A DNA stretch of 64,000 bases from Owenia fusiformis (taxonomy: Eukaryota; Annelida; Polychaeta; Sabellida; Oweniidae): NCBI GenBank assembly GCA_903813345.2, contig CAIIXF020000002.1, positions 13,288,150 through 13,352,149 on the forward strand, given 5' to 3'. The stretch's first letter is position 1. Each line of letters begins with the position of its first letter. The notes beneath the pieces were generated by a model. That model had not been told where the DNA came from. It made no database searches and worked only from the letters and a program-made list of their open reading frames with translations. This document shows, in pieces, positions 1 to 39,200 of this stretch. A program made the position numbers and the translations under genes.

Positions 1-140
1 TTTGTCTCCATTAGGGGACTAGGTTGAGTTTCAATGACTTACTGTAGATGTCGCTTTTGACCAGTTTTTATCTCTTGCAATCAGTTGCATCCCATTAGCA
101 GGGGGCTGCTCCCAGTACTATTCCAGTTTTTCTTGGGGGG

Positions 141-480
141 AAGTCAAACAACCAGACAACCAACCAACCAACTTACCGAACATCCAACCGACCAACCAAT
201 GACCCAATAGGCTTAATCTATTAACTAACCAACCAACTAACCAACCAACTAGACAACCACCAGACCACCCAATAGGTTAAAACTAACCAACCAACTAACT
301 AATTAATCAACAAACTAATCAACACTCCATCCAACGAACCAAACAACCAACGAACCAGACAATCAACGAACCAGACAAGCAACGAACCAGAAGACCAAGA
401 TCATGGATCTAGTGCTTAGTATTGTATTCTATTGTATTGTATAGTTTTGTATTGTTTTGTTTTGTATTGTATTGTATTTC
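141..480 (+). repeat. CCAAC-rich and TTGTA simple-sequence tracts (unit 1 example)
   Basis: About 250 bp of degenerate ACCAACCAACTAACC-type sequence, almost without G on this strand, is followed by a short TTGTATTG tract. The same pair opens every unit (about 3030-3375, 5920-6260, 9155-9495, 11,885-12,215). The number of TTGTA steps differs between units. Confidence 0.8.
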
Positions 481-704
481 GTTAACCAGTACTTACTCAG
501 TAATGATTCAATTTTAAAGTTGACTTCAAGTACTACTCCAGATCTAAATTTTGAAGGTCTGAAGTCTTGTGTTCATTTTAGCTACAGTTGTAGATTGAAG
601 GGTCTTTTCTTTTGGGTTTTCATGTTAAAATTGTGGGCTTAGTTTCGGGGTTTCTTTCTTTTTAATTGAACCATCGCTGATCTTTTCCTTAAATGTACTT
701 TCAG

Positions 705-916
705 GTGCAGTCCTCTTGCCTTGGAGAGAACAGAAAGAACCACAAAGGGAAAACCACAGAGAATCTACAATTTGTGCTACCTACCTGCAGCATTTGTGAT
801 CTACATACCTCTTGCCTTGGAGAGAATAAAAAGAAACACAAAAGGAAAACCACAGAGAATCTGCAATTTGCGCTACCTATCTGCAGCATTTATATCTACA
901 TACCATCTTGTTAAAG
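705..916 (+). other. Exon-like block A (unit 1)
   Basis: A 212-bp block bounded by a good acceptor (TACTTTCAG before 705) and a donor (AAAG|GTACTG at 916/917). It is an internal tandem duplication with a ~96-bp period, each half starting CTCTTGCCTTGGAGAGAA and ending with the CTGCAGCATTT motif. Two plus frames are open through it: one contains SCLGENRKNHKGKTTENLQF, the other LERTERTTKGKPQRIYNLCY. Neither matches a family I know. The block could be a coding exon of unknown function or an exon of a long non-coding RNA. Confidence 0.4.
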
Positions 917-1384
917 GTACTGTAACACATAATCAGTTCTATCATTTGATGATTTTGCTCTCTGGTTCAGTACGGTTATTCCACACGACACATTTTTCAA
1001 TTGTTGGGATTCTAATCCCATTGTTGGCACATGTATGTTTGGCAAACATTTTTTCTAAGAAATACACTAAAAGAGGACTGCCTTGATTTCACTTAATGTA
1101 CAGATGTACCATGAAGCCATGTTTCATTATTTTCACATGTGGTCTGTGTTCTTAAAGAATATACATATGCTCAACTATTCCATTCTTCCTACAGAGTTAC
1201 ATCTGCCCAAGCAGTTAGTTGACTTGATGATATAAATCTTGAGCCAGGAGGGGTATAAGGCTATGACAGATTTACTAGAGTCAATGAAAGGAATGTCTTT
1301 GCATTCCCTCCTCCGCTTGTATTGGAAGTGACTCGACCAAGTTGCATCCTTGTATTTTTCATTTTCTTATCTTGTATCTTTCAG

Positions 1385-1666
1385 GTACAACAATGAGAGA
1401 GATGCAGCAAACACACCAAGTTAGGGCGACAGCTGGATCAGTCTTTCGACAACTTTGAGCCATCAGGTCCGGTCCACGTAAACAGTATCATGGGCGAGAG
1501 GTGTTCGTGTTCCTGTCACCAAAGCACCAAAGTAAGTACATTTTTTTTCTATTCAATTATTACAACAGGTTAGTTCCTCTGTTTTCAGGTTCCCTTTCAG
1601 CTTGGAGATGAGGAGCCCGATGACCAACGACACAACCGAGACAACAGCTGCGTTCCTGCTACCTAA
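1385..1666 (+). other. Exon-like blocks C and D with a spliced open frame (unit 1)
   Basis: Block C (1385-1531) follows TATCTTTCAG and ends AAA|GTAAGTAC. Block D starts at 1589 after CTGTTTTCAG. Joining them in phase 0 gives one frame, open from codon 5 of block C to a TAA at 1664-1666. It includes LDQSFDNFEPSGPVHVNSI, MGERCSCSCHQSTK and, across the junction, VPFQLGDEEPDDQ. The first ATG in this frame (1491) would give a 39-residue peptide. An in-frame TGA lies at the start of block C, so it is either a small protein or a 3' coding end reached from another frame. I recognise no domain. The 57-bp gap is very short for an intron. Confidence 0.35.
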
Positions 1667-2039
1667 GTTAAGTATTCCTTCCTGGTTTTGCATAGGGATG
1701 GGGGGCGCCTCCCAGTTTGATATTTACTTGTGGACTTTTGTTGGCCGACCCATATTTTTGGTGGAGAAACTTGGACTCTAAGGTAAAGTGGGAGGGGGGT
1801 GGTTGGGTTTCCGGGGGGATAGAGTTCATGTTTCAAAATCAAAAATATGGAAGTCTACTGGTTTATATCAAATTGGGAGAAATAAATTTTATCTTTTGTA
1901 ATATTCTGTAAATTTTTAGTAGTGTAGAGTAAAGTATAGTGTAAAGTTTTATTTAAAGTTTTTATGTAAAGTTTTATGTAAAATAACAACTACTACAACA
2001 TGGTTTGTCTATTTGTAGCACAGATGGTGAAGTCCCTGC

Positions 2040-3026
2040 GAAAAGACGGTCCTGTTGGAATCACATTTTTTCGACGAGGGGACTAGGTCAAGTTTCCAGG
2101 ACTTACAGTAGATGTCGCATTTTGACCAGTTTTATCTCTTGCAATCAGTTGCATCCCATTAGAAGGGGGGGGGGAACTCCCAGTACTATTCCAGTTTTCC
2201 TGCGGAATAACAGTCCTGTTGAAATCACATTTATCTCCATTAGGGGACTAGGTTGAGTTTCAAGGACCTACCGTACATGTCGCTCTGACCAGTTTTTATC
2301 TCTTGCAATCAATTGCATCCCATTAGCAGGGGGGGGGGGGGAATCCAAGTACTCTTCCAGTTTTCCTGCGGAAAGACAGTCCTGTTGAAATCACATTTGT
2401 CTCCATTAGGGGACTAGGTTGAGTTTCAAGGACTTACCGTAGATGTCGCTTTTGACCAGTTTTCATCTCTTGCAATCAGTTGCATCCCATTAGCAGGGGG
2501 GGGACTCCCAGTACTATTCCAGTTTTCGTGCGGAAGGACGGTCCTGTTGAAATCACATTTGTCATCATTAGGGGACTAGGTTGAGTTTCAAGGACCTACC
2601 GTACATGTCGCTCTGACCAGTTTTTATCTCTTGCAATCAATTGCATCCCATTAGCAGGGGGGGGGGGACTCCCAGTACTCTTCCAGTGTTCCTGCGGAAA
2701 GACAGTCCTGTTGAAATCACATTTGTCTCCATAAGGGGACTAGGTTGAGTTTCAAGGACTTACAGTAGATGTCGCATTTTGACCAGTTTTATCTCTTGCA
2801 ATCAGTTGCATCCCATTAGCAGAGGGGGGGAACTCCCAGTAGTTTTTCAGTTTTCCTGCAGAAAGACAGTCCTGTTGAAATCACATTTGTCTCTATTAGG
2901 GGACTAGGTTGAGTTTCAAGGACTTACTGTAGATGTCGCTTTTGACCCGTTTTTATCTCTTGCAATCAGTTGCATCCCATTAGCAGGGGGCTGCTCCCAG
3001 TACTATTCCAGTTTTTCTTGGGGGGA
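2040..3026 (+). repeat. ~163-bp tandem repeat array with poly-G runs (unit 1)
   Basis: Six copies spaced 163, 167, 162, 164 and 164 bp, measured at the recurring CCTGTTGAAATCACATTT. Every copy has the CATCCCATTAGCAG motif followed by a run of about 5-13 G, then ACTCCCAGTACT. Two alternating subtypes (GACCTACCGTACATGTCG and GACTTACCGTAGATGTCG) suggest expansion in pairs. Confidence 0.9.
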
Positions 3027-3604
3027 AGTCAAACAACCAGACAACCAACCAACTTACCGAACATCCAACCGACCAACCAATGACCCAATAGGCTTAATCT
3101 ATTAACTTACTTACTTACTAACCAACCAACTAACCAACCAGACAACCACCAGACCACCCAATAGGTTAAAACTAACCAACCAACTAACTAATTAATCAAC
3201 AAACTAATCAACACTCCATCCAACGAACCAAACAACCAACGAACCAGACAAGCAACGAACCAGACAAGCAACGAACCAGACAAGCAACGAACCAGATGAC
3301 CAAGATCATGGATCTAGTGCTTAGTATTGTATTGTTTGGTATTGTATTGTATTGTATTGTTTTGTATTGTATTGTATTTCTTTGACCAGTACTTACTCAG
3401 TAATGATTCAATTTTAAAGTTGACTTCAAGTACTACTCCAGATCTAAATTTTGAAGGTCTGAAGTCTTGTGTTCATTTTAGCTACAGTTGTAGATTGAAG
3501 GGTCTTTTCTTTTGGGTTTTCATGTTAAAATTGTGGGCTTAGTTTCGGGGTTGCTTTCTTTTTAATTGAACCATCGCTGATCTTTTCCTTAAATGTACTT
3601 TCAG

Positions 3605-3814
3605 GTGCAGTCCTCTTGCCTTTTAGAGAAAAAAGAACCACAAAGGGAAAACCATAGAGAATCTACAATTTGTGCTACCTACCTGCAGCATTTGTGATCT
3701 ACATACCTCTTGCCTTGGAGAGAACAAAAAGAAACACAAAAGGAAAACCACAGAGAATCTGCAATTTGTCCTACCTATCTGCAGCATTTATATCTACATA
3801 CCATCTTGTTAAAG
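3605..3814 (+). other. Exon-like block A (unit 2)
   Basis: Copy of block A with both splice-like boundaries kept. Small indels in the A-rich part change the open frame relative to unit 1, which argues against strong coding constraint. Confidence 0.4.
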
Positions 3815-4283
3815 GTACTGTAACACATAATCAGTTCTATCATTTGATGATTTTGCTCTCTGGTTCAGTACGGTTATTCCACAACGACAGATTTTTCAAT
3901 TGTTGGGATTCTAATCCCATTGTTGGCCCATGTATGTTTGGCAAACATTGTTTCTAAGAAATACACTAAAAGAGGACTGCCTTGATTTCACTTAATGTAC
4001 AGATGTACCATGAAGCCATGTTTCATTATTTTCACATGTGGTCTGTGTTCTTAAAGAATATACATATGCTCAACCATTCCATTCTTCCTACAGAGTTACA
4101 TCTGCCCAAGCAGTTAGTTGACTTGATGATATAAATCTTGAGCCAGGAGGGGTATAAGGCTATGACAGATTTACTAGAGTCAATGAAAGGAATGTCTTTG
4201 CATTCCCTCCTCCGCTTGTATTGGAAGTGACTCGACCAAGTTGCATCTTTGTATTTTTCATTTTCTTATCTTGTATCTTTCAG

Positions 4284-4564
4284 GTACAACTATGAGAGAG
4301 ATGCAGCAAACACACCAAGTTAGGGCGACAGCTGGATCAGTCTTTCGACAACTTTGAGCCATCAGGTCCGGTCCACGTAAACAGTATCATGGGCGAGAGG
4401 TGTTCGTGTTCCTGTCACCAAAGCACCAAAGTAAGTACATTTTTTTCTATTCAATTATTACAACAGGTTAGTTCCTCTGTTTTCAGGTTCCCTTTCAGCT
4501 TGGAGATGAGGAGCCCGATGACCAACGACACAACCGAGACAACAGCTGCGTTCCTGCTACCTAA
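4284..4564 (+). other. Exon-like blocks C and D (unit 2)
   Basis: Copy of the unit-1 pair with the same boundaries, the same in-frame TGA near the start and the same TAA end. Confidence 0.35.
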
Positions 4565-4937
4565 GTTAAGTATTCCTTCTTGGTTTTGCATAGGGATGGG
4601 GGGCGCCTCCCAGTTTGATATTTACTTGTGGACTTTTGTTGGCCGACCCATATTTTTGGTGGAGAAACTTGGACTCTAAGGTAAAGTGGGAGGGGGGTGG
4701 TTGGGTTTCCGGGGGGATAGAGTTCATGTTTCAAAATCAAAAATATGGAAGTCTACTGGTTTATATCAAATTGGGAGAAACAAATTTTATCTTTTGTAAT
4801 ATTCTGTAAATTTTTAGTAGCGTAGAGTAAAGTATAGTGTAAAGTTTTATTTAAAGTTTTTATGTAAAGTTTTATGTAAAATAACAACTACTACAACATG
4901 GTTTGTCTATTTGTAGCACAGATGGTGAAGTCCCTGC

Positions 4938-5917
4938 GAAAAGATGGTCCTGTCGGAATCACATTTTTTCCACGAGGGGACTAGGTCAAGTTTCCAGGAC
5001 TTACAGTAGATGTCGCATTTTGACCAGTTTTATCTCTTGCAATCAGTTGCATCCCATTAGAAGGGGGGGGGGAACTCCCAGTACTATTCCAGTTTTCCTG
5101 CGGAATGACAGTCCTGTTGAAATCACATTTATCTCCATTAGGGGACTAGGTTGAGTTTCAAGGACCTACCGTACATGTCGCTCTGACCAGTTTTTATCTC
5201 TTGCAATCAATTGCATCCCATTAGCAGGGGGGGGGGGAATCCAAGTACTCTTCCAGTTTTCCTGCGGAAAGACAGTCCTGTTGAAATCACATTTGTCTCC
5301 ATTAGGGGACTAGGTTGAGTTTCAAGGACTTACCGTAGATGTCGCTTTTGACCAGTTTTCATCTCTTGCAATCAGTTGCATCCCATTAGCAGGGGGGGGG
5401 GACTCCCAGTACTATTCCAGTTTTCGTGCAGAAGGACGGTCCTGTTGAAATCACATTTGTCTCCATTAGGGGACTAGGTTGAGTTTCAAGGACCTACCGT
5501 ACATGTCGCTCTGACCAGTTTTTATCTCTTGCAATCAATTGCATCCCATTAGCAGGGGGGGGACTCCCAGTACTCTTCCAGTGTTCCTGCGGAAAGACAG
5601 TCCTGTTGAAATCACATTTGTCTCCATTAGGGGACTAGGTTGAGTTTCAAGGACTTACAGTAGATGTCGCATTTTGACCAGTTTTATCTCTTGCAATCAG
5701 TTGCATCCCATTAGCAGGGGGGGAACTCCCAGTAGTTTTTCAGTTTTCCTGCAGAAAGACAGTCCTGTTGAAATCACATTTGTCTCCATTAGGGGACTAG
5801 GTTGAGTTTCAAGGACTTATGTAGATGTCGCTTTTGACCAGTTTTTATCTCTTGCAATCAGTTGCATCCCATTAGCAGGGGGCTGCTCCCAGTACTATTC
5901 CAGTTTTTCTTGGGGGG
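4938..5917 (+). repeat. ~163-bp tandem repeat array (unit 2)
   Basis: Same repeat and same order of subtypes as in unit 1, six copies, with different poly-G run lengths. Confidence 0.9.
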
Positions 5918-6487
5918 AAGTCAAACAACCAGACAACCAACCAACAAACTTACCGAACATCCAACCGACCAACCAATGACCCAATAGGCTTAATCTATTA
6001 ACTAACTTACTTACTAACCAACCAAATAACCAACCAGACAACCACCAGACCACCCAATAGGTTAAAACTAACCAACCAACTAACTAATTAATCAACAAAC
6101 TAATCAACACTCCATCCAACGAACCAGACAAGCAACGAACCAGATGACCAAGATCATGGATCTAGTGCTTAGTATTGTATTGTTTGGTATTGTATTGTAT
6201 TGTATTGTATTGTATTGTATTGTATAGTTTTGTATTGTTTTGTTTTGTATTGTATTGTATTTCTTTGACCAGTACTTACTCAGTAATGATTCAATTTTAA
6301 AGTTGACTTCAAGTACTACTCCAGATCTAAATTTTGAAGGTCTGAAGTCTTGTGTTCATTTTAGCTACAGTTGTAGATTGAAGGGTCTTTTCTTTTGGGT
6401 TTTCATGTTAAAATTGTGGGCTTAGTTTCGGGGTTGCTTTCTTTTTAATTGAACCATCGCTGATCTTTTCCTTAAATGTACTTTCAG

Positions 6488-6699
6488 GTGCAGTCCTCTT
6501 GCCTTTTAGAGAAAAAAAAGAACCACAAAGGGAAAACCACAGAGAATCTACAATTTGTGCTACCTACCTGCAGCATTTGTGATCTACATACCTCTTGCCT
6601 TGGAGAGAACAAAAAGAAACACAAAAGGAAAACCACAGAGAATCTGCAATTTGTCCTACCTATCTGCAGCATTTATATCTACATACCATCTTGTTAAAG
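6488..6699 (+). other. Exon-like block A (unit 3)
   Basis: Copy of block A with the same acceptor. The donor side reads AAAG|GTACTA. It shares the unit-2 variant in the first half-repeat. Confidence 0.4.
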
Positions 6700-7166
6700 G
6701 TACTAACACATAATCAGTTCTATCATTTGATGATTTTGCTCTCTGGTTCAGTACGGTTATTCCACAACGACAGATTTTTCAATTGTTGGGATTCTAATCC
6801 CATTGTTGGCACATGTATGTTTGGCAAACATTGTTTCTAAGAAATACACTAAAAGAGGACTGCCTTGATTTCACTTAATGTACAGATGTACCATGAAGCC
6901 ATGTTTCATTATTTTCACATGTGGTCTGTGTTCTTAAAGAATATACATATGCTCAACTATTCCATTCTTCCTACAGAGTTACATCTGCCCAAGCAGTTAG
7001 TTGACTTGATGATATAAATCTTGAGCCAGGAGGGGTATAAGGCTATGACAGATTTACTAGAGTCAATGAAAGGAATGTCTTTGCATTCCCTCCTCCGCTT
7101 GTATTGGAAGTGACTCGACCAAGTTGCATCCTTGTATTTTTCATTTTCTTATCTTGTATCTTTCAG

Positions 7167-7444
7167 GTACAACTATGAGAGAGATGCAGCAAACACACCA
7201 AGTTAGGGCGACAGCTGGATCAGTCTTTCGACAACTTTGAGCCATCAGGTCCGGTCAACGTAAACAGTATCATGGGCGAGAGGTGTTCGTGTTCCTGTCA
7301 CCAAAGCACCAAAGTAAGTACTTTTTCCATTCAATTATTACAACAGGTTAGTTCCTCTGTTTTCAGGTTCCCTTTCAGCTTGGAGATGAGGAGCCCGATG
7401 ACCAACGACACAACCGAGACAACAGCTGCGTTCCTGCTACCTAA
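7167..7444 (+). other. Exon-like blocks C and D (unit 3)
   Basis: Copy of the pair. The intervening spacer is a few bases shorter (pyrimidine-tract difference), while the exon-like parts are unchanged apart from single substitutions. Confidence 0.35.
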
Positions 7445-7817
7445 GTTAAGTATTCCTTCCTGGTTTTGCATAGGGATGGGGGGCGCCTCCCAGTTTGATA
7501 TTTACTTGTGGACTTTTGTTGGCCGACCCATATTTTTGGTGGAGAAACTTGGACTCTAAGGTAAAGTGGGAGGGGGGTGGTTGGGTTTCCGGGGGGATAG
7601 AGTTCATGTTTCAAAATCAAAAATATGGAAGTCTACTGGTTTATATCAAATTGGGAGAAATAAATTTTATCTTTTGTAATATTCTGTAAATTTTTAGTAG
7701 TGTAGTGTAAAGTATAGTGTAAAGTTTTATTTAAAGTTTTTATGTAAAGTTTTATGTAAAATAACAACTACTACAACATGTTTTATCTATTTGTAGCACA
7801 GATGGTGAAGTCCCTGC

Positions 7818-9150
7818 GAAAAGACGGTCCTGTTGGAATCACATTTTTTCCACGAGGGGACTAGGTCAAGTTTCCAGGACTTACAGTAGATGTCGCATTT
7901 TGACCAGTTTTATCTCTTGCAATCAGTTGCATCCCATTAGAAGGGGGGGGGGGAACTCCCAGTACTATTCCAGTTTTCCTGCGGAATGACAGTCCTGTTG
8001 AAATCACATTTGTCTCCATTAGGGGACTAGGTTGAGTTTCAAGGACCTACCGTACATGTCGCTCTGACCAGTTTTTATCTCTTGCAATCAATAGCATCCC
8101 ATTAGCAGGGGGGGGGGGACTCCCAGTACTCTTCCAGTTTTCCTGCGGAAAGACAGTCCTGTTGAAATCACATTTGTTTCCATTAGGGGACTAGGTTGAG
8201 TTTCAAGGACTTACCGTAGATGTCGCTTTTGACCAGTTTTCATCTCTTGCAATCAGTTGCATCCCATTAGCAGGGGGGGGGGACTCCCAGTACTATTCCA
8301 GTTTTCGTGCGGAAGGATGGTCCTGTTGAAATCACATTTGTCTCCATTAGGGGACTAGGTTGAGTTTCAAGGACCTACCGTACATGTCGCTCTGACCAGT
8401 TTTTATCTCTTGCAATCAATTGCATCCCATTAGCAGGGGGGGGGGACTCCCAGTACTCTTCCAGTTTTCCTGCGGAAAGACAGTCCTGTTGAAATCACAT
8501 TTGTCTCCATTAGGGGACTAAGTTGAGTTTCAAGGACTTACCGTAGATGTCGCTTTTGACCAGTTTTCATCTCTTGCAATCAGTTGCATCCCATTAGCAG
8601 GGGGGGGGGGGGGGGGAACTCCCAGTACTATTCCAGTTTTCGTGCGGAAGGACGGTCCTGTTGAAAACACATTTGTCTCCATTAGGGGTCTAGGTTGAGT
8701 TTCAAGGACCTACGGTACATGTCGCTCTGACCAGTTTTTATCTCTTGCAATCAATTGCATCACATTAGCAGGGGGGGGGGACTCCCAGTACTCTTCCAGT
8801 ACTCTTCCAGTTTTCCTGCGGTAAGACAGTCCTGTTGAAATCACATTTGTCTCCATTAGGGGACTAGGTTGAGTTTCAAGGACTTACAGTGGATGTCGCA
8901 TTTTGACCAGTATTATCTCTTGCAATCAGTTGCATCCCATTAGCAGGGGGTGGGGAACTCCCAGTAGTTTTTCAGTTTTCCTGCAGAAAGACAGTCCTGT
9001 TGAAATCACATTTGTCTCCGTTAGGGGACTAGGTTGAGTTTCAAGGACTTACTGTAGATGTCGCTTTTGACCACTTTTTATCTCTTGCAATCAGTTGCAT
9101 CCCATTAGCAGGGGGCTGCTCCCAGTACTATTCTAGTTTTTCTTGGGGGG
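7818..9150 (+). repeat. ~163-bp tandem repeat array (unit 3)
   Basis: About eight copies. The extra pair repeats the alternating subtypes. One copy carries the longest G run of the array (about 16 G near 8600). Confidence 0.9.
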
Positions 9151-9722
9151 AAGTCAAACAACCAGACAACCAACCAACCAACTTACCGAACATCCAACCG
9201 ACCAACCAATGACCCAATAGGCTTAATCTATTAACTAACTTACTTACTAACCAACCAACTAACCAACCAGACAACCACCAGACCACCCAATAGGTTAAAA
9301 CTAACCAACCAACTAACTAATTAATCAACAAACTAATCAACACTCCATCCAACGAACCAAACAACCAACGAACCAGACAAGCAACGAACCAGACAAGCAA
9401 CGAACCAGATGACCAAGATCATAGATCTAGTGCTTAGTATTGTATTGTATTGTATTGTATAGTTTTGTATTGTTTTGTTTTGTATTGTATTGTATTTCGT
9501 TGACCAGTACTTACTCAGTAATGATTCAATTTTAAAGTTGACTTCAAGTACTACTCCAGATCTAAATTTTGAAGGTCTGAAGTCTTGTGTTCATTTTACC
9601 TACAGTTGTAGATTGAAGGGTCTTTTCTTTTGGGTTTTCATGTTAAAATTGTGGGCTTAGTTTCGGGGTTTCTTTCTTTTTAATTGAACCATCGCTGATC
9701 TTTTCCTTAAATGTACTTTCAG

Positions 9723-9934
9723 GTGCAGTCCTCTTGCCTTGGAGAGAACAGAAAGAACCACAAAGGGAAAACCACAGAGAATCTACAATTTGTGCTACCT
9801 ACCTGCAGCATTTGTGATCTACATACCTCTTGCCTTGGAGAGAATAAAAAGAAACACAAAAGGAAAACCACAGAGAATCTGCAATTTGTGCTACCTATCT
9901 GCAGCATTTATATCTACATACCATCTTGTTAAAG
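9723..9934 (+). other. Exon-like block A (unit 4)
   Basis: Copy of block A nearly identical to unit 1, with both splice-like boundaries kept. Confidence 0.4.
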
Positions 9935-10402
9935 GTACTGTAACACATAATCAGTTCTATCATTTGATGATTTTGCTCTCTGGTTCAGTACGGTTATTCC
10001 ACACGACACATTTTTCAATTGTTGGGATTCTAATCCCATTGTTGGCACATGTATGTTTGGCAAACATTTTTTCTAAGAAATACACTAAAAGAGGACTGCC
10101 TTGATTTCACTTAATGTACAGATGTACCATGAAGCCATGTTTCATTATTTTCACATGTGGTCTGTGTTCTTAAAGAATATACATATGCTCAACTATTCCA
10201 TTCTTCCTACAGAGTTACATCTGCCCAAGCAGTTAGTTGACTTGATGATATAAATCTTGAGCCAGGAGGGGTATAAGACTATGACAGATTTACTAGAGTC
10301 AATGAAAGGAATGTCTTTGCATTCCCTCCTCCGCTTGTATTGGAAGTGACTTGACCAAGTTGCATCCTTGTATTTTTCATTTTCTTATCTTGTATCTTTC
10401 AG

Positions 10403-10683
10403 GTACAACAATGAGAGAGATGCAGCAAACACACCAAGTTAGGGCGACAGCTGGATCAGTCTTTCGACAACTTTGAGCCATCAGGTCCGGTCCACGTAAA
10501 CAGTATCATGGGCGAGAGGTGTTCGTGTTCCTGTCACCAAAGCACCAAAGTAAGTACATTTTTTTCTATTCAATTATTACAACAGGTTAGTTCCTCTGTT
10601 TTCAGGTTCCCTTTCAGCTTGGAGATGAGGAGCCCGATGACCAACGACACAACCGAGACAACAGCTGCGTTCCTGCTACCTAA
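10403..10683 (+). other. Exon-like blocks C and D (unit 4)
   Basis: Copy of the pair with splice-like boundaries, frame and stop kept. Confidence 0.35.
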
Positions 10684-11056
10684 GTTAAGTATTCCTTCCT
10701 GGTTTTGCATAGGGATGGGGGGCGCCTCCCAGTTTGATATTTACTTGTGGACTTTTGTTGGCCGACCCATATTTTTGGTGGAGAAACTTGGACTCTAAGG
10801 TAAAGTGGGAGGGGGGTGGTTGGGTTTCCGGGGGGATAGAGTTCATGTTTCAAAATCAAAAATATGGAAGTCTACTGGTTTATATCAAATTGGGAGAAAT
10901 GAATTTTATCTTTTGTAAAATTCTGCAAATTTTTAGTAGTGTAGTGTAAAGTATAGTGTAAAGTTTTATTTAAAGTTTTTATGTAAAGTTTTATGTAAAA
11001 TAACAACTACTACAACATGTTTTATCTATTTGTAGCACAGATGGTGAAGTCACTGC

Positions 11057-11880
11057 GAAAAGACGGTCCTGTTGGAATCACATTTTTTCCACGAGGGGAC
11101 TAGGTCAAGTTTCCAGGACTTACAGTAGATGTCGCATTTTGACCAGTTTTATCTCTTGCAATCAGTTGCATCCCATTAGAAGGGGGGGGGGGAACTCCCA
11201 GTACTATTCCAGTTTTCCTGCGGAATGACAGTCCTGTTGAAATCACATTTATCTCCATTAGGGGACTAGGTTGAGTTTCAAGGACTTACGGTAGATGTCG
11301 CTTTTGACCAGTTTTCATCTCTTGCAATCAGTTGCATCCCATTAGCAGGGGGGGGGGAACTCCCAGTACTATTCCAGTTTTCGTGCGGAAGGATGGTCCT
11401 GTTGAAATCACATTTGTCTCCATTAGGGGACTAGGTTGAGTTTCAAGGACCTACCGTACATGTCGCTCTGACCAGTTTTTATCTCTTGCAATCAATTGCA
11501 TCCCATTAGCAGGGGGGGGGACTCCCAGTACTCTTCCAGTTTTCCTGCAGAAAGACAGTCCTGTTGAAATCACATTTGTCTCCATTAGGGGACTAGGTTG
11601 AGTTTCAAGGACTTACAGTAGATGTCGCATTTTGACCAGTTTTATCTCTTGCAATCAGTTGCATCCCATTAGCAGGGGGGGGGGAACTCCCAGTAGTTTT
11701 TCAGTTTTCCTGCAGAAAGACAGTCCTGTTGAAATCACATTTGTCTCCATTAGGGGACTAGGTTGAATTTCAAGGACTTACTGTAGATGTCGCTTTTGAC
11801 CAGTTTTTTATCTCTTGCAATCAGTTGCATCCCATTAGCAGGGGGCTGCTCCCAGTACTATTCCAGTTTTTCTTGGGGGG
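11057..11880 (+). repeat. ~163-bp tandem repeat array (unit 4)
   Basis: About five copies. One subtype step present in units 1-3 is missing, which explains the shorter unit. Confidence 0.9.
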
Positions 11881-12880
11881 AAGTCAAACAACCAGACAAC
11901 CAACCAACTGGACATCCAACCGACCATCCAATGACCCAACAGGCTTAATCTATTAACCAACTTACTTACTAACCAACCAACTAACCAACCAGACAACCAC
12001 CAGACCACCCAATAGGTTAAAACTAACCAACCAACTAACTAATTAATCAACCAACTAACCAACACTCCATCCAACGAACCAAACAACCAACGACCAGACA
12101 AGTAACGAACCAGACAAGCAACGAACCAGATGACCAAGATCATGTATCTAGTGCTTAGTAGTGTATTGTATTGTATTGTATTGTATTGTATTGTGTAGTT
12201 TTGTATTGTATTGTATTTCGTTGAACAGTACTTACTCAGTAATGATTCAATTTTAAAGTTGACTTCAAGTACTACTCCAGATCTAAATTTTGAAGGTCTG
12301 AAGTCTTGTGTTCATTTTAGCTACAGTTGTAGATTGAAGGGTCTTTTCTTTTGGGTTTTCATGTTAAAATTGTGGGCTTAGTTTCGGGGTTTCTTTCTTT
12401 TTAATTGAACCATTGCTGATCTTTTCCTTAAATGTACTTTCAGGTGCAGTCCTCTTGCCTTGGAGAGAACAAAAAGAACCACAAAGGGAAAACCACAGAG
12501 AATCTACAATTTGTGCTACCTATCTGCAGCATTTGTATCTACATACCTCTTGCCTTGGAGAGAACAAAAAGAAACACAAAAGGAAACCACAGAGAATCTA
12601 CAATTTGTGCTACCTATCTGCAGCATTTGTATCTACATAGCATCTTGTTCAAGGTACTGTAACAAATAATCAGTTCTATCATTTGATGATTTTGCTCTCT
12701 GGTTCAGTAGGGTTATTCCACAACGACCTTTTTTTAATTGTTGAGATTCTTATTCCATTGTTGGCACATGTATGTCTGGCAAACATTTTTGTCTAAGAAT
12801 TACACTGAATGATGACTTCCTTGATTTCATTTAATGTACGAATGTAGCATGAAGCCATGATTCATTTTTTCACATGTGGT
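11881..12880 (+). repeat. 3-kb array, partial unit 5
   Basis: The last unit keeps the CCAAC tract, the TTGTA tract and block A (12,444-12,653). Similarity then decays after about 12,780, before blocks C-D. It is more diverged than the others, as expected for the edge of a homogenising array. Confidence 0.8.
12444..12653 (+). other. Exon-like block A (unit 5)
   Basis: Last tandem copy of block A. The two 96-bp halves are more alike here than in the other units. It has an acceptor at 12,441-12,443 and the donor CAAG|GTACTG. An intron-like stretch then leads to the candidate terminal exon at 13,526. Confidence 0.4.
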
Positions 12881-13001
12881 CTTTCATGCTTGGGTGAATA
12901 ATCATACCTACTGCACAATGGGCACTAGGATTCAGATAGTAATAAAACTAACAAATCAAAATCTAACTGTAAACCTGTCATAATAGTACTCACCAATTCT
13001 A

Positions 13002-13194: not shown

Positions 13195-13525
13195 AGGGGT
13201 TCTTCAACAGGACATTAGACTAGCTTTTTAGAACTATATATGTTGGTGCTTTGGGAATGGACCCTATCACAAAACCATGATCTCACATGAAAAGAAATAA
13301 TGGCTTACATCCCCCTTCCCCCTCCAATCAAGAACCAATATCACAATCCAGTACCAAAACACAAAGGGGCATTTCATTTTCATTCATACTGAAATCATTA
13401 CAATATTTGTTGAAGAAAAAATTGAAAACCAATAACATCAAAAACAGTTGTAGACACTAGTACTCATAAAGATGGAGCAAAAATTAAATCCTAATCCTGA
13501 TTTCTTTTCCTTTTTTTATTTTCAG

Positions 13526-13990
13526 GTTCACTCCTCTTACCTTGGAGACAACATTTGTGCTACATGTCTGCAGCATCTACATTCATATACTGTATTGTCA
13601 TGCACTGCTTCAATCGACAAATTGGTGACTGTTTGCATGCAGACCATCTAGTCTATGGAATTTAAATTGTATCAATATTGGACATGCTAAATCCAGTGAA
13701 CTCTGTGGCAGACGGCATAAATCACCCATGGGACTTCACACATAGTGTAGTGTTACACCAGTTGGTAGATTTTGCCTAAGTTACACGACTCATATTTATG
13801 CTAGTTTTGGACTATGAACTATGTTCATGAATTTTATTTGATGCTATAGCCTTCTTGTGTGCTGTTATTCCTTAATGTCTCGCTATAAATGTACAAATGC
13901 AATAATTTATATGTGCAAAATCTATATTGATTATTGAATCAAAATGGACACTATATAAATGTATTCCTTAATCATAGATGAATAAAATGA
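13526..13990 (+). other. Candidate terminal exon related to block A, with poly(A) signal
   Basis: Follows a strong acceptor (poly-T then TTTTCAG at 13,525). It begins as a shortened, diverged copy of block A (CTCTTACCTTGGAGACAAC and CTGCAGCATCTACATTCATA). One frame is open from 13,526 to a TAG at 13,649-13,651 (41 codons, including SSYLGDNICATCLQHLHSY). AT-rich sequence with AATAAA at 13,981-13,986 follows, consistent with a 3' UTR. This suggests the array belongs to a transcribed locus ending here. The product is unknown. Confidence 0.4.
13981..13986 (+). terminator. Candidate poly(A) signal AATAAA
   Basis: A canonical hexamer about 330 bp after the stop of the frame in the candidate terminal exon. 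No further plus-strand exon-like block was found before 18 kb. Confidence 0.35.
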
Positions 13991-14284
13991 GTAATTTTAA
14001 ATTTAAGATGTTTATTTAAAATCAATTAAATGAAAAAAATCACATGCCAAACCCATAGAAAGATAGTATTTGAAGACTGAATCTGTCAAAAGATGACATG
14101 ATTGATGAATTTCACTGAAGATTTTATTATTGTGTACATTAGAAATTGTTCTCTTTTCTTCAAAAATATGCAAAATTGAACCGATGTTAGAACAGAATGA
14201 AGTAATCCGTCATACCATCTCTTGCTTGGAATCCAAGTAATTTTTGAAAATATATTCTGCAACAAGAACACAAATGTGTACAAC

Positions 14285-19087: not shown

Positions 19088-22000
19088 CTGAAAGTAAAAA
19101 AGAATTATGAGTACATTGTGGAAGTTTTGTGTAAGAAATGAAGAATGGCATAACATATAATACCTGGGAACTCCTAATTTCAATTTATAGAAAATAAGGC
19201 AGAAAAGTTTGTCTCGAGGTGAAGTTTTATCTTTCAATTCATATGCCCTAAAACCTGAATAATACATTTTTAGCAGCCTCCTCTTTTCTCATTTAAAAAT
19301 TCTCTTAGTTTCTCCAATTTGGATAAATGAAAATTTCATATATTTGATTAAAGATAAAATCAGATCTGATCAGATAATAAAAAAATGGATATAATTTTTT
19401 GCCCATTTTTTGTAACTTAATTATTGAATACAACTACTCTTTACAGTTACATGGCTATTTACAATGCAGGACACCTGAAATTATTTGTAAAGCTAAGAAA
19501 GGGGCCAAAAGTGAATTTCGCGAGACAAAAATGGCGACCATTTTGAAAATGGGCAAGCTTTTGAACCAGGAGTCATATGGGAGTTTTCTGTATTGATGTT
19601 GAACAAAAGCAAATGGTCCATAAGTAAATTTTGCGGGACAAAAATGGTGGCCGTTTTGAAAATAGCCGAGCTTATGAACCAGGAGTCATAGGGGGTTTTC
19701 TATATTGATGTTGAACAAAAATAACTAATAAAAACGGGAATCCTATTCACCTTTCCCCAAAGTCCAAAGTGTACTCATTTGACCGCTGCGCCGATTGGTC
19801 GGTGAAAATCAATGACGTCAAAGCAGGGCACTTTTCGCGCGAAAACTTCATTTACTATTAGATCGCCCAATGAGTAAAATAAATCTCATCTAAAATGATA
19901 TCAAAACTAATTGAAATTTATTTTTCTGACTATTTTGTCTTCAACTGTGTCTTAAATACACTACCCGATAAATGAAACCATAGGAATAATTGTGATATGA
20001 GTGCTTGTCTTCGAATAAATTGAATCCAATTACCGTACCAAAGACAAACAATTATTCAGACATCAAGACTGTACATATTATTGGTCGTGAACTATTAATT
20101 CATTTTAGATGCAATTTGAAGTAACGAATAGTCAAACATCAAAGCTTGTATTTTTAAACTTCTCCCTTGAAGATATTATTGTCCATAAATATCGTGACTA
20201 TTCTCTCAGCAGTTCTATATTTAAAAAGAATGCCCATGGGCTTTTTAAGAGGTAAATCTCATTCAAATAGACGATCGTGGGAAAAACAGCTAGAAACTTT
20301 GTCTCAATAAAACAACTTTAACATTGTTCAATGAAATTAATCATCAATTATGTAACCATTATCAAATTCTTCGGCAGACATAAAAGTAACATTGTCTTGT
20401 GAAATAATAGGTGGCTGAAAAAGGGAAAGTAACGCACTGCTAGCCCAGATTTGATTGATAGATGCGAAAAGATTGATCGGGATTGCTCGATCAAAGATGT
20501 GGTTATTTTTCACTTTATTAATACTACGTTCCACATGTATTCTTTCTGCGGCAATCTGCTGTGTTTGATACACATCGTTGGCATCCATTTGATCATTCTG
20601 GCCATGGAATGGGCCAGGGGGAATATTTATATTCACGCCAAGTGGATCGAGCAAATCTTTTATCAATTATTATCAAGCACTGATTCAAGAGTCGAAAATG
20701 TTTTCTTTAAGCCCCCCCCCCCCCCCCTCCGGCGTTAATTAGGTCCCGAATTAAGCCTCTTGTTCAATCTCCCCATTTTAATTTATATTTCCCTAGTTGG
20801 ATGTACATCAATACTTGTTCATTAACTGGAGTGTATGCACGACTCTAGTAGGCCAAAACCTTGATAATTTACCCCCCCCCCCCGATACATGTCTCGTTTT
20901 TACTGTTGATTGATCAATTAATATCTATTTCTATATAGCACAAGCGTATTATTACAGTGCAGTAGTCAGTGGTATGTTGCCAGTCAAGAAGTACATATCA
21001 GGGTCGATGTGCTGTAAACATCGAACTCTTCACATCAATATTACTCTATTCATTTGATTTCTCAGAACAGTATAATGAAGGGAGAATATGAATGAGAGTG
21101 TAATCAATTAAATTCCATCACATTTATGATACAGATTATTAAGTAATCACCATGATTCAACAATTAAATGAGCCCGTCGTCTCTGTCGCGATTCACATTG
21201 ACTTGTAATGTGTTCAGATTTTGCCGCGAAAATCTGCCCTACTCTGACGTCAGAGATTCTAGATTTGCTAATTATAATATTCATGAGCTGACTTTGGGGA
21301 AAGGTGAACTGACAGAGGTTTTAAAACGGGCCAATTGTTGACAGACAGACAGACGGACGGACGGATGGACAAGAACACAAAAGTTTACAACATGTTCCCA
21401 CTGATGGGTGATCTTACATAATTTTTTCATCCTGAAAGCCAAACAATAATTATCATTTGAAGAAAACCTTTTAGAAAACAATTCAAAATGGCCACCTTTC
21501 CTTTTACAATTAGCCTGAAAACGTGTAGACAAGACTTTACAGACACGATTTTAAGATGGAAAATCCAAAATGGCTGCCTCAACATTTACCCAAAACACAA
21601 CACAACACCCAAAACAGTTGAAGTGTATCGATTCATACTAAGAATTATCCCTGAAAATTTGAAATTGATCCTTAAAACAATTTGCCTGAAAACACTAAAC
21701 AAGACTTACAGACATGATTTTACGATGGAAGACACCAAGATGGCCGACAATAAGAAAGCAGACATAAAAGACCACGTGCAGTATGGCAAGTGATTTTAGA
21801 CAGTCATATCTTTCATCATGAGTACTTTCTGGCCATAAATACAATGGCTTTTATGAAAACAATATGTTTTCTTTCAAGGGAAGTCCCCATGATAGTAAAA
21901 TATCAATCCAACTCTCTGAAAAATTATGGATGAGGGCCCCACCTTGGCACTTTTTGAAAGATGTTAGGCTTATTTTCTAAAAAGAGGATCTTGTTTTTCT

Positions 22001-33249: not shown

Positions 33250-36200
33250 GTAATATACTCTATTCTTTTCTTCCGATAGGGACTAGATCAAAGTGTTTGT
33301 TCAATCAACATGTACCGCATATTTGATTTATAGTCAGGCAAAGGGCACTGAATCAGTACGCCCTCTCTACAGAAACACCAGAGTTCAAAGATGACATACG
33401 CTTACTAATATAAACCTGTATTGAGATGACACACATCTCTGATTGGTCAAAAGTTGACAAACAAATGATGTCATCAATAGCGGTTTCAAAATTTTCGAAA
33501 TACGCTTCGAATAATATTCGGACTGTCTCCCAGTCCGATAATTGCAATTGAGTATTTGCTTGGGTACTGACTTACTTCGGTCCAAAGCCTTCTCTATATT
33601 CCAGCTTTGAGGAGGAAGATTGAGCTGCCTTAGTATTATAAATATTGTAAATCATTGTGTCACACGCACAGTAAATATGGCATAATAATATGAAATATAC
33701 CTTTATGTATAGATTTGAAGAACATCAGCTCACATCCCCGTCTGAATCTATTGTTATATTTGATTTCTTTAAGCGAGAATAATTTCAAATGTTATTCACG
33801 TCCAGAACCGGAAGCCATTTTTAGCTACAGCGAGAAAATTTCACCATTTGTCAAACTCCGAAATGAAATTTTGAAATATCTAAATCCAGACAAGCAACGC
33901 TTCATCCTAAATATTATTAATATTCTTAAAAATATTTATAAAATTTATTAAAAATGAGTTCTAGGTGCGTGTAGGTGCGTGTAGCACATTACATACGAAA
34001 TCAATGAAGTTTCGTCTAGCTGTAAGCTAGAGACTCGAGTAAGTACTGACAATTGTCGTCACTCTATCGTCTCCTAGTAGGGCAAGATAGAGGACCGACA
34101 TTTTCAAATATAAATACACTAGATCTAGTGAGAAGTTCATATGGTCAAAATAACGAAATAATGAAATGTTACCATGGGTCTACTTAGCAGTTTGTTCTAT
34201 GTCATCCATCCTGCTAGGTTACATTGTGCAGGCCTGTCAACTTGGGAACACCTAACATGAGTGACTTGGAAATGTTGAACACCTCCCCTCAAAATGTGGA
34301 CACCTTGGTCCAAATCTGGACACCTTGATCCAAATTTTGAACACCTTGGTTTAAATTTTATTACATCTTGCCAAATTTTGAACACCTCAAACTTTTCGCG
34401 CTCGCTACGCTCGCGTTTCAAATATCCGTCAACGGGGGGGGGGGGGGGGGGGGGGGGAGTAGGTACGAAAAATTTCGAACGGAATGCGTGACATATACGT
34501 AATTCGCGTGAAAAGTCCGAACAAAATGCGTACATTTTTTTCCGGCGTTCGTATTTTTGCTGTGTAGACGATCTTTTTTAGAAATTTTTCTACAGAAATA
34601 TTTTTGCTTGACAATTACCAGGTAAAATGCGTATTTGCGTGACATTTTCTGTCACGCAAAAATAACTGGCGTGACTTCAAATTCTTCAGCAAATGCGTGA
34701 CAAATACGCAAATTGCGGGACAGTTGACAGGCCTGCATTGTGGAACACTGAAGGCAGTATTCTATGTCTATGTCAATAATCTGCAAAAGGCTAATAAGCC
34801 CATATAAAGCAGATATATAATTTAACAGTGATAGAATTTGAATAGAATATAATTTAAATCTATGGTTTACAACTCATTTTAAAATTGAAGGGAACCTTCC
34901 TGGTTGGCCCCTGTACCCCCCTAGGAAGGATGATACAACCTACATGTAGTGTTGGTATTGATCTGTTGGCGGAAGTATGGAGGCACGTCGATGGCTGCTA
35001 GGTTCTGCTTTCCTTTGTAGAAAAGGAAAACTCTAGCAGCCTCTCGACGCTCCTTCAGTGGCTCCCACTGTAGGTCTTGAAGAGTTTTGGTGACGCAGCC
35101 TGGTTCCCTCGAGTGACATTTGGTTACAAACCTGGCTGCTCTTCTCTGTACCTGTTCCAACATATCAATATCTTTTTGTCGGTATGGATCCCATGCCGAG
35201 CTGGCATACTCTAAATTAGGCCGGACTAGTGACTTATACGCCTGAGCCTTCACTTTTTCAGGGTATTGATGGAGGTTGCACCAGAGGAATCCAAGCACCT
35301 TATTGGCTTTGGATACAGTAGTTTGAATATGTGTAGTCCAGCGTAAGTTATTTGTGATGTCAATACCTAGGTATGGGATGTGTGTTACCGACTTAAGGTT
35401 TTCCCCTAGCATGGTGTAATTGTGAATGATAGGGGATTTACCTTTGTGAATATTTAGCACATAGCATTTTGATGGATGGAATTTCATTTGCCATGTTGAT
35501 GCCCAGGAGACCAGTTTATCAAGATTCTCCTGTAGTGTTAATGCATCTTGCTTGCTTTCGACTGTCATGAATAAAAGGCTGTCGTCAGCAAATAGCTTGA
35601 GACTGGCTGAGGATGATAGGCTATTGCCCATATCATTGATATAAACAAAGAAACAGAGTGGTCCAAGAACTGTTCCTTGAGGAACTCCTGATTTTACTGG
35701 AGTTTTTGAACTTGATTCGCCATCAAGCACTACCTGTTGTGATCTTCCCACAAGCCAGGATCTGTTATTATTGCGAATTCCATAATAGTTGAGTTTGAGC
35801 AAGAGGCGTTCATGAGCCACCGTGTCAAACGCTTTGGAAAAGTCTAATACCAACATGTCTGTTTGTTTATAAATGATTGTCAAGGGCCCGAGCTATATTC
35901 TCTATTGTATTACATACCCAGCGAAGCATTTGTATTGAAGTCAATGGAGCTGAAGGTCGGCTATATATTCCTGTATAGCCGCCAAACCTTTTACCATTAC
36001 AATCTTATGACGTCATCGGGACGTCATGTTTCATTTCTTCCTAATTTCACTCGCACACAAACACGTGGCGTCATTGATATAACGTAGCCATGATATAAAA
36101 GTATGTAATACAACAGTTATGTCCGTATCATTGAATATATGCCTTCGGTCTGTCGTAATATAACCCTCGCAAGCTCGGGCTATATTGGTGACAGACCTCA

Positions 36201-39200
36201 GGCATATATTCAATGATAGGGACATAACTGCTAAGTATTGACAAGTTGGGTTTCACATGAGTGCTTTGACCTGAATCCATGTTGGAAGTTTACTAGAATT
36301 TCATTGAGGTCAAAGTGGGCCATAATATGATGGAATATAATATGTTCCATTATTTTACATGGAACTGACGTCAGAGATTCACAGCCTCATCTCTTCGTCC
36401 CTTTTTGTAGATAGCAGTAACATTGGCATGTTTCCAGTCCATAGGCACTAAGCCTTCATCGATGGACTGTTGAAAAATTATTTGAAGGAATGGCGATATG
36501 CTGTCACTGCATTCCTTCAGGACCCTAGTCGGAATAAGATCGGGTCCAGTGGCTTTTGATGGATTTAGGCCAGTTAGCAATTTGTGAATTCCTTCTGTCG
36601 AAATTTTGATATTTGGCATTTCAGGAATTTGACTCCGGGGTACCATCATTGTCGGTAGAGTAGCATCCTCATCTGTGAATACAGAATTGTATTGGTCATT
36701 GAGGATGTTTGGTTTCGCCTCTTCCGTGCAGTCGGCCTCGGTGGTTCTGATTCAGTAGAATCAGATGATGATGACGAATTGTCAAGATCAGAGAGAGCGC
36801 TGAAGGAGTTTGTTACCGAGGAATGAGAAAGAGTAGAATCATTGAAGAAGCTGTTGGAAAAATTAGGTAGGGCACATCCAGGGCAGATCCAGCTGAAACT
36901 ACCCGCATTGAGAAAAACATTGTACTCAGCAGGGGAAACGTTGCCACATTTGATGTGTACCCATGTGCCGCATTCATCGCATTCAAGGGCGCGATGATTC
37001 TTGGCAACTGCTTTCTGTCACATACCGCAGGGAAATTTAACAGGACCTGGGTTTGGGTGGATGTCACCACTAAGAATAAGACATAGGAAAAGCAGTGGTG
37101 TAGACGATTTCTTGTGAAGGATTCCACGAGAGCCAACAATCTTATGGAAACGTCGCAGTTGCATCAACTGTGTGTATGACTCTGTTGAAGGTAAGTTGTT
37201 TCCATGATCACAGAAAAATGACTGGACTGCGAAAACAAAGCAGAGAAGGAGCAAACCATATCCTTGGAAACCCATGACAAAGAGGTAGGTAAAACCCGTT
37301 AGCTGAAAATAAGAAAAATTCGCGCAAAAATATGAAAAATGCCGCGAAAACTGAAGTTTGTAAAATACGAAAATTAAAACTGATTTATCCCCCAAAGGGG
37401 GTCCTGCTATTATTTAAATGTCGTTGATTATTAGAAGTAAGTATGTAAGTTATTAAAATCGGGAGGTTTTATCGAGAATAAATTAGAATTGCGCAGGTAA
37501 TCTATGTAATTATGATTTAATTTTCGTAAGAGAGAAGAAAACATCCGCCATTAATGACGCATGCGCACTTCCTGACGCTATAAAAGGTTATAAAATCTAA
37601 ATCTAAAAAAATTCCCATTTGCAGCCCCTTGGAGATTTCCAGAATTGAACAAAGTAGCGAACATTGCGATCTTTCAACTTTAGTTCGTTGTTTTTCACCA
37701 CTTTATGTGTAGTGTTTTCATTTTGGAGGCGGTCTTATTTGAATGCATCATATTCATTTCAGGTCTTTATGAATCAATAGATCAATAAGCAGACTAAAAG
37801 TACAATTTAGCAGTTTCTTTCATTGCGCACTGGGCCTGTTAGGCACGAAATACAATTTAGCAGTTTCGTTCGTTGCGTAATTGGGCCTTCTATAATCAGT
37901 AGCAAATGCTCGGAAAACATTTTCCAAAATATTTACTACAGTTTTCCTTGAAGGCATGGTTGGGTCGATAGAGTAACTAGTCACGTGATCAGACATGTGT
38001 CACGTGTCAGTCACGTGAGCTTGCAAAATGGACGATCTAAATTTCCAAGAATTCTGCTAAGATCAGTATCTATATGTTGTTGCCTTCATTGTCGTGTTTG
38101 GTTGCATTCCACAATGCAACCTAGCAGGATGGATGACACACAACAAACTGCTAAGTTGACACATGGTAACATTTCATTATTTCGTTATTTTAACCATATG
38201 AACTTCTCACTAGAATGAGTGTTTTATCTTTAGTTTCACCCTTGATTGTATTGTTCACTGATAGCGTAGTGGTTAGCGTCCCCGGCTACTATGCACATGG
38301 TACCGAGTTTGACTCCCGCTTTCGGATGTATTTTTTTCTGTGTCTAAATTATACATTCGTATATATTTAAAAAGTTACGAATGACTTACGAATTTGTAAA
38401 GTTATTAACAGAACACTTTCGTAAGTCATTCATAAGTTTAAACGTTCGTAAACGAATTTCAAATTGTGACGTCATCTTATATCATTATTTAGCACAAATA
38501 GAAATATGATGTCATTTAATATCATTGCGCGCTGTGATTAAATCTGTCTCCGCGATTTCAAAGATTCCCAGCTCAGGAACATATTTGCATCATGTAAGAT
38601 CTCTGAAAAGTAGTCAATGAACAGAATCTTTTGAAGTTTTCAGAAAATGTGCACAATGTATTGGTCTAAATGATACAATCTTTGAAAATTTGATATCATT
38701 CATAGAAATGAAAAAAGTGCAAAAAAGTGAATTCCTTTGTCAGAAGCCAAATATTGTCTAAGTTTGGGGGAAATTAAAAGTTTTCTATCCTTTATTTTTT
38801 TATTTAGCAATCTTATTTTGCACTTCCTTGTTTATGATTTGTACCTTATTTTCCATGGGACATGCAGATAAATGTATGATTAATGCAACTCTGTTCAACC
38901 AGTCACAGTACATCTTTCCAACAGGTGTAAAATTGTATTAATCAGTTAAAGGTTCAATATAAACTTTGGTTAATCTAATATTATCAAAGTGTGAAGCTTT
39001 TGTTCAAAATATCATGAATTTATTAAATACTAACTTTGAGGTTACACTAACACATAATTCACACCAATGCATAGCATTCATCCTCACTTTTTTTGCCGAC
39101 AAAATTAAGAAAATTGGTTGATAAATAAGCGAGCAATAAACTCCTTCATTGATGAAAGTGGTTCAGGGCAAATGCATTTCGAAATTTTAGTTCTCATAGA

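What the first reader, a model, noticed from the sequence alone, without database searches (positions are those of the whole stretch)
141..12880. Recently duplicated 3-kb units that each carry splice-bounded exon-like blocks
Four full units and a partial one are nearly identical, and in every copy the acceptor and donor dinucleotides of blocks A, C and D are intact. A gene whose 3' part is duplicated as whole exon cassettes, each with its own G-run satellite, would be an unusual and fast-changing locus. No protein family is recognisable, so it may be a lineage-specific gene or a long RNA.
Basis: partly seen in the sequence, partly recalled or inferred. Interest (0 to 1): 0.72.

Follow-up and report, generated by a model that had tools for sequence, protein, structure and literature searches.

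The report
Forty-locus repeated-exon RNA gene family
The repeated 3-kb blocks are the body of one gene in a family of about forty related, apparently non-coding genes, crowded into one stretch of each of two chromosomes, whose start, last exon and end signal are kept while the repeated exon blocks are copied and re-copied.

Summary
In detail: four full units (95.5-97.2% to unit 1) and a partial fifth (93.0%), splice dinucleotides intact; the array starts about 4.2 kb left of the window. It is one gene of a dispersed family: 43 copies of a promoter element and 39 hand-merged terminal-exon places, mostly in C2 11.8-17.2 Mb and C12 18.3-23.9 Mb, and 361 copies of an exon-C 29-mer. Of 37 TATA-type 5' elements, 28 have a terminal exon 6.6-34 kb downstream, all same-strand. 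In 29 terminal exons, conservation rises at the acceptor and falls after AATAAA (0.89; intron 0.79; downstream 0.69). A CCAAT-like heptamer is invariant in 44 of 44 promoters. Exon C is closed in all frames in 29 of 30 copies; no protein or RNA family matches the array. Best reading: a family of long, probably non-coding Pol II genes with tandem exon cassettes, nearest in plan to IPW-A/SNORD116, but no C/D snoRNA found. Against: no RNA data; inside cassettes exons are no more conserved than introns; our array is no more uniform within than towards a neighbour array. Species unnamed.

The parts
1..140 (+). tail of the satellite of the unit upstream of the window; the array continues left to about C2:13283952 (L006 about 5803)
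141..3025 (+). unit 1 (phase arbitrary)
3026..5917 (+). unit 2, 97.2% to unit 1
5918..9150 (+). unit 3, 95.5% to unit 1 up to 8800; longer satellite
9151..11880 (+). unit 4, 96.7% to unit 1 up to 11870
11881..12882 (+). partial unit 5, ends after block A, 93.0%
705..916 (+). exon-like block A, unit 1 (others: 3605-3814, 6488-6699, 9723-9934, 12444-12653)
1195..1213 (+). possible short block B behind a good acceptor (CATTCTTCCTACAG); donor and end uncertain, read by eye
   Evidence: acceptor only
1385..1531 (+). exon-like block C, unit 1 (others: 4284-4430, 7167-7313, 10403-10549); stops in all frames
1589..1666 (+). exon-like block D, unit 1 (others: 4487-4564, 7367-7444, 10606-10683); an alternative donor would extend it to 1782
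2035..3015 (+). 164-bp satellite with G-runs, unit 1 (others: 4933-5907, 7813-9140, 11053-11870)
13526..14005 (+). conserved terminal exon (3' end approximate); 39 hand-merged places in the genome
13981..13986 (+). AATAAA polyadenylation signal, present in 28 of 30 copies found with 3 mismatches or fewer

Best explanation
The window holds most of one member of a family of about 40 long, multi-exon RNA polymerase II genes that probably make non-coding RNA. Anatomy: a conserved promoter-like block (CCAAT-like box, E-box, TATA-like stretch) and possible 5' exons left of the window; then a run of cassettes of about 2.3-3.3 kb, each with blocks A, (B), C, D and a G-rich 164-bp satellite; then one terminal exon with AATAAA at 13526-14005. 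Shown by sequence: the plan recurs on two main chromosomal blocks, and the ends are conserved in the shape of a promoter and of an exon. Inferred: the gene is transcribed and spliced into an RNA carrying several near-identical modules, and module number changes by unequal exchange. Least certain: that the RNA acts through the multiplied modules, as a multivalent binding RNA or a precursor of many identical small RNAs.
For: Exon-shaped conservation of 29 terminal exons: 0.891 in the exon, 0.790 in the intron before it, 0.687 after AATAAA; 0 of 20,000 label permutations on 20-nt blocks as large. Acceptor AG in 27 of 29. AATAAA in 28 of 30 copies of a 31-place pattern, 13 exact, although the 471-bp regions around are mostly 72-77% identical to ours. 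CCAAT-like heptamer TTGGTCA invariant in 44 of 44 promoter rows, best of 854 windows, and outside the 30-mer by which 43 of the rows were found. Genome-wide 30-mers: 37 TATA and 43 E-box elements, reversed-pattern control 0. 28 of 37 TATA elements have a terminal exon downstream, 28 of 28 same strand. Nine splice-signal windows are more conserved among 7 array representatives than random placements (140 of 10,000 as high; chosen after one search had shown them, one set one base off). Non-coding: C closed in all frames in 29 of 30 copies; 92 of 320 indels in terminal exons are multiples of 3, no clear codon periodicity; no Pfam match for array ORFs.
Against: No RNA evidence. Inside cassettes blocks A, C, D are not more conserved than introns (0.957 against 0.960, p = 0.46; likewise). 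Donors are ordinary. On the minus strand of unit 1 the satellite carries acceptors and the unit carries donors that score higher than any on the plus strand. One transcript model has a 123-aa ORF, above the shuffled 95th percentile of 103; A is open in frame 1 in 26 of 29 copies. The TATAAATA box is not unusually conserved in the 44-row alignment (285 of 853 windows as good). The putative exon 2 is poorly conserved or poorly aligned there (0.62-0.72). 9 of 37 TATA elements have no terminal exon within 60 kb.
Confidence: 0.68

Rival explanations
1. Host gene (a special case of the best reading): the repeated exons are by-products and each cassette's intron makes a small RNA, as in the IPW-A/SNORD116 array.
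For: Same plan: tandem non-coding exon cassettes with introns between; pre-A and A-B introns are at least as conserved as the exons (0.981 and 0.972 against 0.950-0.965).
Against: No C/D-box candidate in the 1.6-kb core of unit 1 (0 found, 0.08 expected); no Rfam match up to E 5 in unit 1; no stable 90-nt hairpin (best z -1.8 of 125 windows). H/ACA RNAs and unknown small RNAs were not tested.
Confidence: 0.12
2. Satellite-like repeat with no working transcript: segmental and tandem duplication of old gene debris.
For: Exons inside cassettes show no constraint beyond introns; most sampled arrays are nearly uniform inside, like ordinary tandem repeats.
Against: Promoter box, terminal acceptor and AATAAA are kept while neighbouring sequence has diverged; the plan promoter - cassettes - terminal exon is kept in 28 of 37 loci.
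Confidence: 0.15
3. Protein- or peptide-coding gene.
For: 123-aa ORF across D-A-terminal exon in one model, above 95% of 200 shuffles; a 57-aa ORF in D-extended is whole in 21 of 30 held copies, some counted twice; a 22-aa ORF MPIRK... recurs in exon 1 (15 of 31 rows).
Against: C is closed in all frames in 29 of 30 copies; the D ORF is cut short in 6 of 30 and reads another frame in 3 C11 copies; terminal-exon indels are mostly not multiples of 3; no Pfam match at E 0.1 and no PDB match better than E 0.26.
Confidence: 0.07
4. A mobile element: the whole promoter-to-polyA block moves as a unit (not exclusive of the best reading).
For: Homology between loci mostly stops near the gene ends; for four other terminal loci it stops within 4 bp of one another at window 14270-14273; few members on C5, C11 and small contigs.
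Against: No transposase or reverse transcriptase in the array ORFs tested; members crowd on two chromosomes and cluster by chromosome on the promoter tree (C12: 8 changes against 14.8 shuffled); two close relatives and other subfamilies share longer 3' flanks. Terminal repeats and target-site duplications were not searched.
Confidence: 0.08
5. The transcript runs on the minus strand through the satellite.
For: By my reading each 164-bp monomer is, on the minus strand, an exon of about 92 nt plus an intron of about 72 nt; acceptors 8.55 (none as good in 98 kb background), donor 6.25 (0.07/kb); donor GTARGT in 25 of 26 monomers.
Against: Acceptor recognised in only 11 of 26 monomers, by a strict pattern; the conserved promoter boxes and AATAAA are ordered for the plus strand.
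Confidence: 0.05

Closest known systems
IPW-A exons hosting SNORD116 (Prader-Willi critical region, mammals)
   Same: Tandemly repeated non-protein-coding exons separated by introns within one locus (abstract beginnings of PMC4742849 and PMC9369261, seen in the listing).
   Different: Here no C/D snoRNA candidate is found, and there are about 40 loci on two main chromosomes, most with their own promoter element and terminal exon.
MHM RNA locus on the chicken Z chromosome
   Same: A non-coding RNA that accumulates near its site and is proposed to act on its chromosomal neighbourhood (passages of PMC2375040); that it is a 2.2-kb tandem repeat is recalled, not seen.
   Different: One locus, no spliced exon cassettes (recalled); no sex linkage is known here.
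Satellite or long-precursor piRNA loci (mosquito tapiR, Bombyx Fem)
   Same: Repeated non-coding units as precursors of many identical small RNAs (recalled; one search gave a listing only, no paper opened).
   Different: Here a multi-exon gene plan with conserved promoter and polyA signal; small RNAs untested.

Membership tests
snoRNA host array (IPW-A/SNORD116 type) | tandem non-coding exon cassettes in one gene | tested here: inconclusive
   cassettes and intact splice signals are there; splicing itself was not observed
snoRNA host array (IPW-A/SNORD116 type) | box C/D snoRNA in each intron | tested here: not met
   0 candidates in the core of unit 1; no Rfam match
long non-coding RNA gene | own promoter and polyA signal under constraint | tested here: met
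   sequence conservation only
long non-coding RNA gene | no conserved coding frame | tested here: met
   exception: a 123-aa ORF above the shuffled 95th percentile in one model
long non-coding RNA gene | stable transcript | not testable with these tools
   no RNA data
transposable element | transposase or reverse transcriptase of its own | tested here: not met
   none in the array ORFs and peptides tested; not every ORF was scanned
transposable element | precise termini with target-site duplications | not tested
   ends compared only roughly
protein-coding gene with repeated exons | open frame through each repeated exon | tested here: not met
   C closed in all frames in 29 of 30 copies

The most novel reading that the evidence does not exclude
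The family is a chromosome-domain RNA system: about 40 co-regulated RNA genes, spread one every few hundred kb over one 5-6-Mb block on each of two chromosomes, whose multi-module transcripts mark or silence those blocks in cis, with module number per gene setting the strength.
Probability: 0.1. Interest if true: 0.85.

Novelty: new variant of a known kind. Interest (0 to 1): 0.52.

Why it matters
To my knowledge large paralogous families of multi-exon non-coding genes are rarely described. One with about 40 members, two levels of growth (gene copies, and cassettes within genes) and measurable constraint on promoter and terminal exon would let one test which parts of a long RNA selection protects. 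The two-block distribution asks for a link to chromosome-scale regulation, small-RNA production or conflict between chromosomes. It is also a trap for annotation: short RNA reads from one member would map to dozens of others.

Tried and rejected
Rejected: coding gene (C closed, frame-breaking indels); C/D snoRNA host in the strict sense; exon-level constraint inside cassettes (looked for twice, not found); single locus or simple assembly artefact.

Led nowhere: COX1 search to place the species (no match); finding the genome by its size in papers (two unrelated papers); literature searches for repeated-exon or multi-copy lncRNA families (listings only; one held no paper), nothing close seen in this open-access library. 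The first alignment of terminal regions mixed strands and was redone. The first units were best hits to window:1380-1680 and so understate divergence (about 1%); arrays fetched by place correct this. Rfam hits in L006 (23 hits, mostly miRNA families) are all below gathering scores and lie in fold-back repeats.

Dropped rows: of 39 hand-merged terminal-exon places 29 were aligned; ten were left out (insertions, fragments, a near-duplicate, or the 20-region limit). All 43 E-box places plus one TATA place gave 44 promoter rows; the tree kept 43. E-box conservation itself is biased because rows were found by it. The exon-C search lists only 100 of its 361 places, all on C2, so the chromosome split of exon C is not known from it.
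Full report
What was checked. Unit 1 (141-3039) recurs three times in full and once in part within the finding, at 93.0-97.2% identity. Blocks A, C and D keep AG and GT in every copy in the window (5 A, 4 C, 4 D). The array runs on to the left: two more copies lie between about -4197 and the window start.

One gene of many. A 29-mer of exon C occurs 361 times with up to 3 mismatches, reversed-pattern control 0; only 100 places are listed, all on C2 at 11.5-15.3 Mb. The region 13520-13990 gave 49 matches, merged by hand to 39 places: 18 on C2, 18 on C12, 2 on C5 and 1 on C457. The 5' flanks of three other arrays, fetched by place, match the main piece L006 about 3.03-3.87 kb at 87-94%. A 30-mer around TATAAATA was found 37 times (14 C2, 19 C12, 2 C11, 1 C5, 1 C509) and a 30-mer around CACGTG 43 times (16 C2, 22 C12 with one at 25.85 Mb, 2 C5, 2 C11, 1 C509). 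Of the 37, 28 have a terminal exon 6.6-34 kb downstream (median 22 kb), 28 of 28 on the same strand; 9 of 37 have none within 60 kb.

Constraint on the ends. In 44 promoter rows the conserved block is L006 3201-3420 (0.94-0.97 agreement by 20-nt bins). A CCAAT-like heptamer is invariant in 44 of 44, and a TATA-like stretch is among the best 14 of 851 windows. The upstream TATAAATA is not exceptional there (285 of 853 windows as good), so the transcription start is more likely near L006 3330 than 3090; this is inference. Motif names are recalled; only their conservation was measured. Putative exon 2 has acceptors scoring 8.0-9.6 in three of four loci, but in the 44-row alignment that part shows only 0.62-0.72 agreement, so the 5' exon structure is uncertain.

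In 29 terminal exons (of 39 places) identity is 0.891 over 443 columns, against 0.790 in 133 intron columns and 0.687 in 82 columns after AATAAA; block-label permutation 0 of 20,000. Acceptor AG is kept in 27 of 29 and GAATAAA in 25 of 29; a 31-place pattern over the signal finds 30 copies genome-wide, 28 with AATAAA. Indels in the exon are multiples of 3 in 92 of 320 cases, and there is no clear codon periodicity.

The cassettes. Units compared by array, mostly fetched by place, differ by 0.1-1.4% within five arrays and 3.9% within a sixth (C11), and by 1.0-7.1% between arrays. That is the pattern of concerted evolution in most arrays, with two results against it: our own array is as varied inside (1.4%) as it is from the array at C2 12.53 Mb (1.0%), and C11 is as varied inside as it is from one C12 array (4.1%). 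So homogenisation works at the level of subfamilies as much as of single arrays. Across 7 array representatives blocks A, C and D are no more conserved than introns (0.957 against 0.960); the C5/C11 comparison says the same. Nine splice-signal windows are more conserved than random placements (0.984 against 0.955 overall; 140 of 10,000), a test set up after one search had shown the sites. Splice dinucleotides are present in the representatives wherever the block is intact and aligned; one C11 cassette has lost the B acceptor. This fits RNA whose splicing matters more than its exon sequence, or young arrays with little power to show constraint.

Coding. Exon C is closed in all frames in 29 of 30 copies; exon A is open in frame 1 in 26 of 29. 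The D-extended ORF (57 aa) is whole in 21 of 30 held copies (some counted twice), cut short in 6 and differently framed in 3. A spliced model with short D contains a 123-aa ORF, above the 95th percentile of 200 shuffles (103); the model with long D has 57 aa, below the shuffled median of 67. Neither peptide matches Pfam at E 0.1; the longer one has no PDB match better than E 0.26. Of the ORFs scanned around the gene, those that matched are reverse transcriptase, transposase or PHD-finger pieces, plus doubtful hits in a 72-bp repeat; most matched nothing. Of 17 upstream ORFs printed, four were scanned and the rest only looked at, so a small-exon coding gene within 60 kb is not excluded.

Small RNAs. 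No Rfam match in the window at gathering scores nor up to E 5 in unit 1; no C/D-box candidate and no stable hairpin. H/ACA RNAs were not tested.

History. On a tree of 43 promoters the copies cluster by chromosome (C12: 8 changes against 14.8 shuffled, 0 of 500 as low), so most members probably arose locally. Some C12 cassettes are 99% identical to ours over 301 bp, while two C12 arrays fetched by place differ by 3.7% and 5.7%, so cassettes or whole genes have also passed between chromosomes.

Mechanism. Shown: gene-like plan and conserved ends. Inferred: transcription, splicing, a multi-module RNA. Guess: function through repeated modules. Closest in plan is the IPW-A/SNORD116 array (abstract beginnings of PMC4742849 and PMC9369261). 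The missing snoRNA fails the membership test but not the likeness of plan. The rivals 'host gene' and 'mobile element' can be true together with the best reading, so the odds given need not sum to one.

Noticed in passing
window 2035-3015 and the other satellites, minus strand: By eye each 164-bp monomer reads on the minus strand as a mini exon and a 72-nt intron with very good splice signals (scores); the donor is kept in 25 of 26 monomers, the acceptor recognised in 11 of 26.
   Followed up: partly
window 49291-51210: 72-bp tandem repeat, 26.5 copies, with open frames of 380 and 272 aa made of a repeated peptide; the Pfam hits there have no single stretch passing the threshold and look like artefacts.
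   Followed up: partly
window 34921-37413, minus strand: Pieces of a retroelement: a reverse transcriptase ORF and a PHD-finger ORF.
   Followed up: no
window 20337-20666, minus strand: Fragment of a DDE_Tnp_4 transposase.
   Followed up: no
window 43030-43833, 54339-54722, and stretches near 15.4-16.5 kb: 162-bp repeats containing GCCATTTTGGATTTT; similar-looking repeats lie near 15.4-16.5 kb and upstream in L005/L006 (similarity to the 162-bp unit judged by eye).
   Followed up: no
L006 3908-4745: Nested fold-back (MITE-like) insertions inside the 5' part of this gene; Rfam hits below gathering scores fall on them.
   Followed up: partly
L005 2560-5721, minus strand: 1054-aa open frame with reverse transcriptase and zf-RVT, upstream of the gene.
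   Followed up: partly
window 1881-1886 and equivalents: A second AATAAA about 100 nt after the D-extended stop, present in units 1 and 3 and changed in units 2 and 4 (sequence); a possible internal polyA site.
   Followed up: no
possible exon 1, L006 about 3340-3410: A short ORF beginning MPIRK or similar recurs in promoter copies; 31 of 44 rows gave an ORF at this place, 15 of them 22 aa long.
   Followed up: partly
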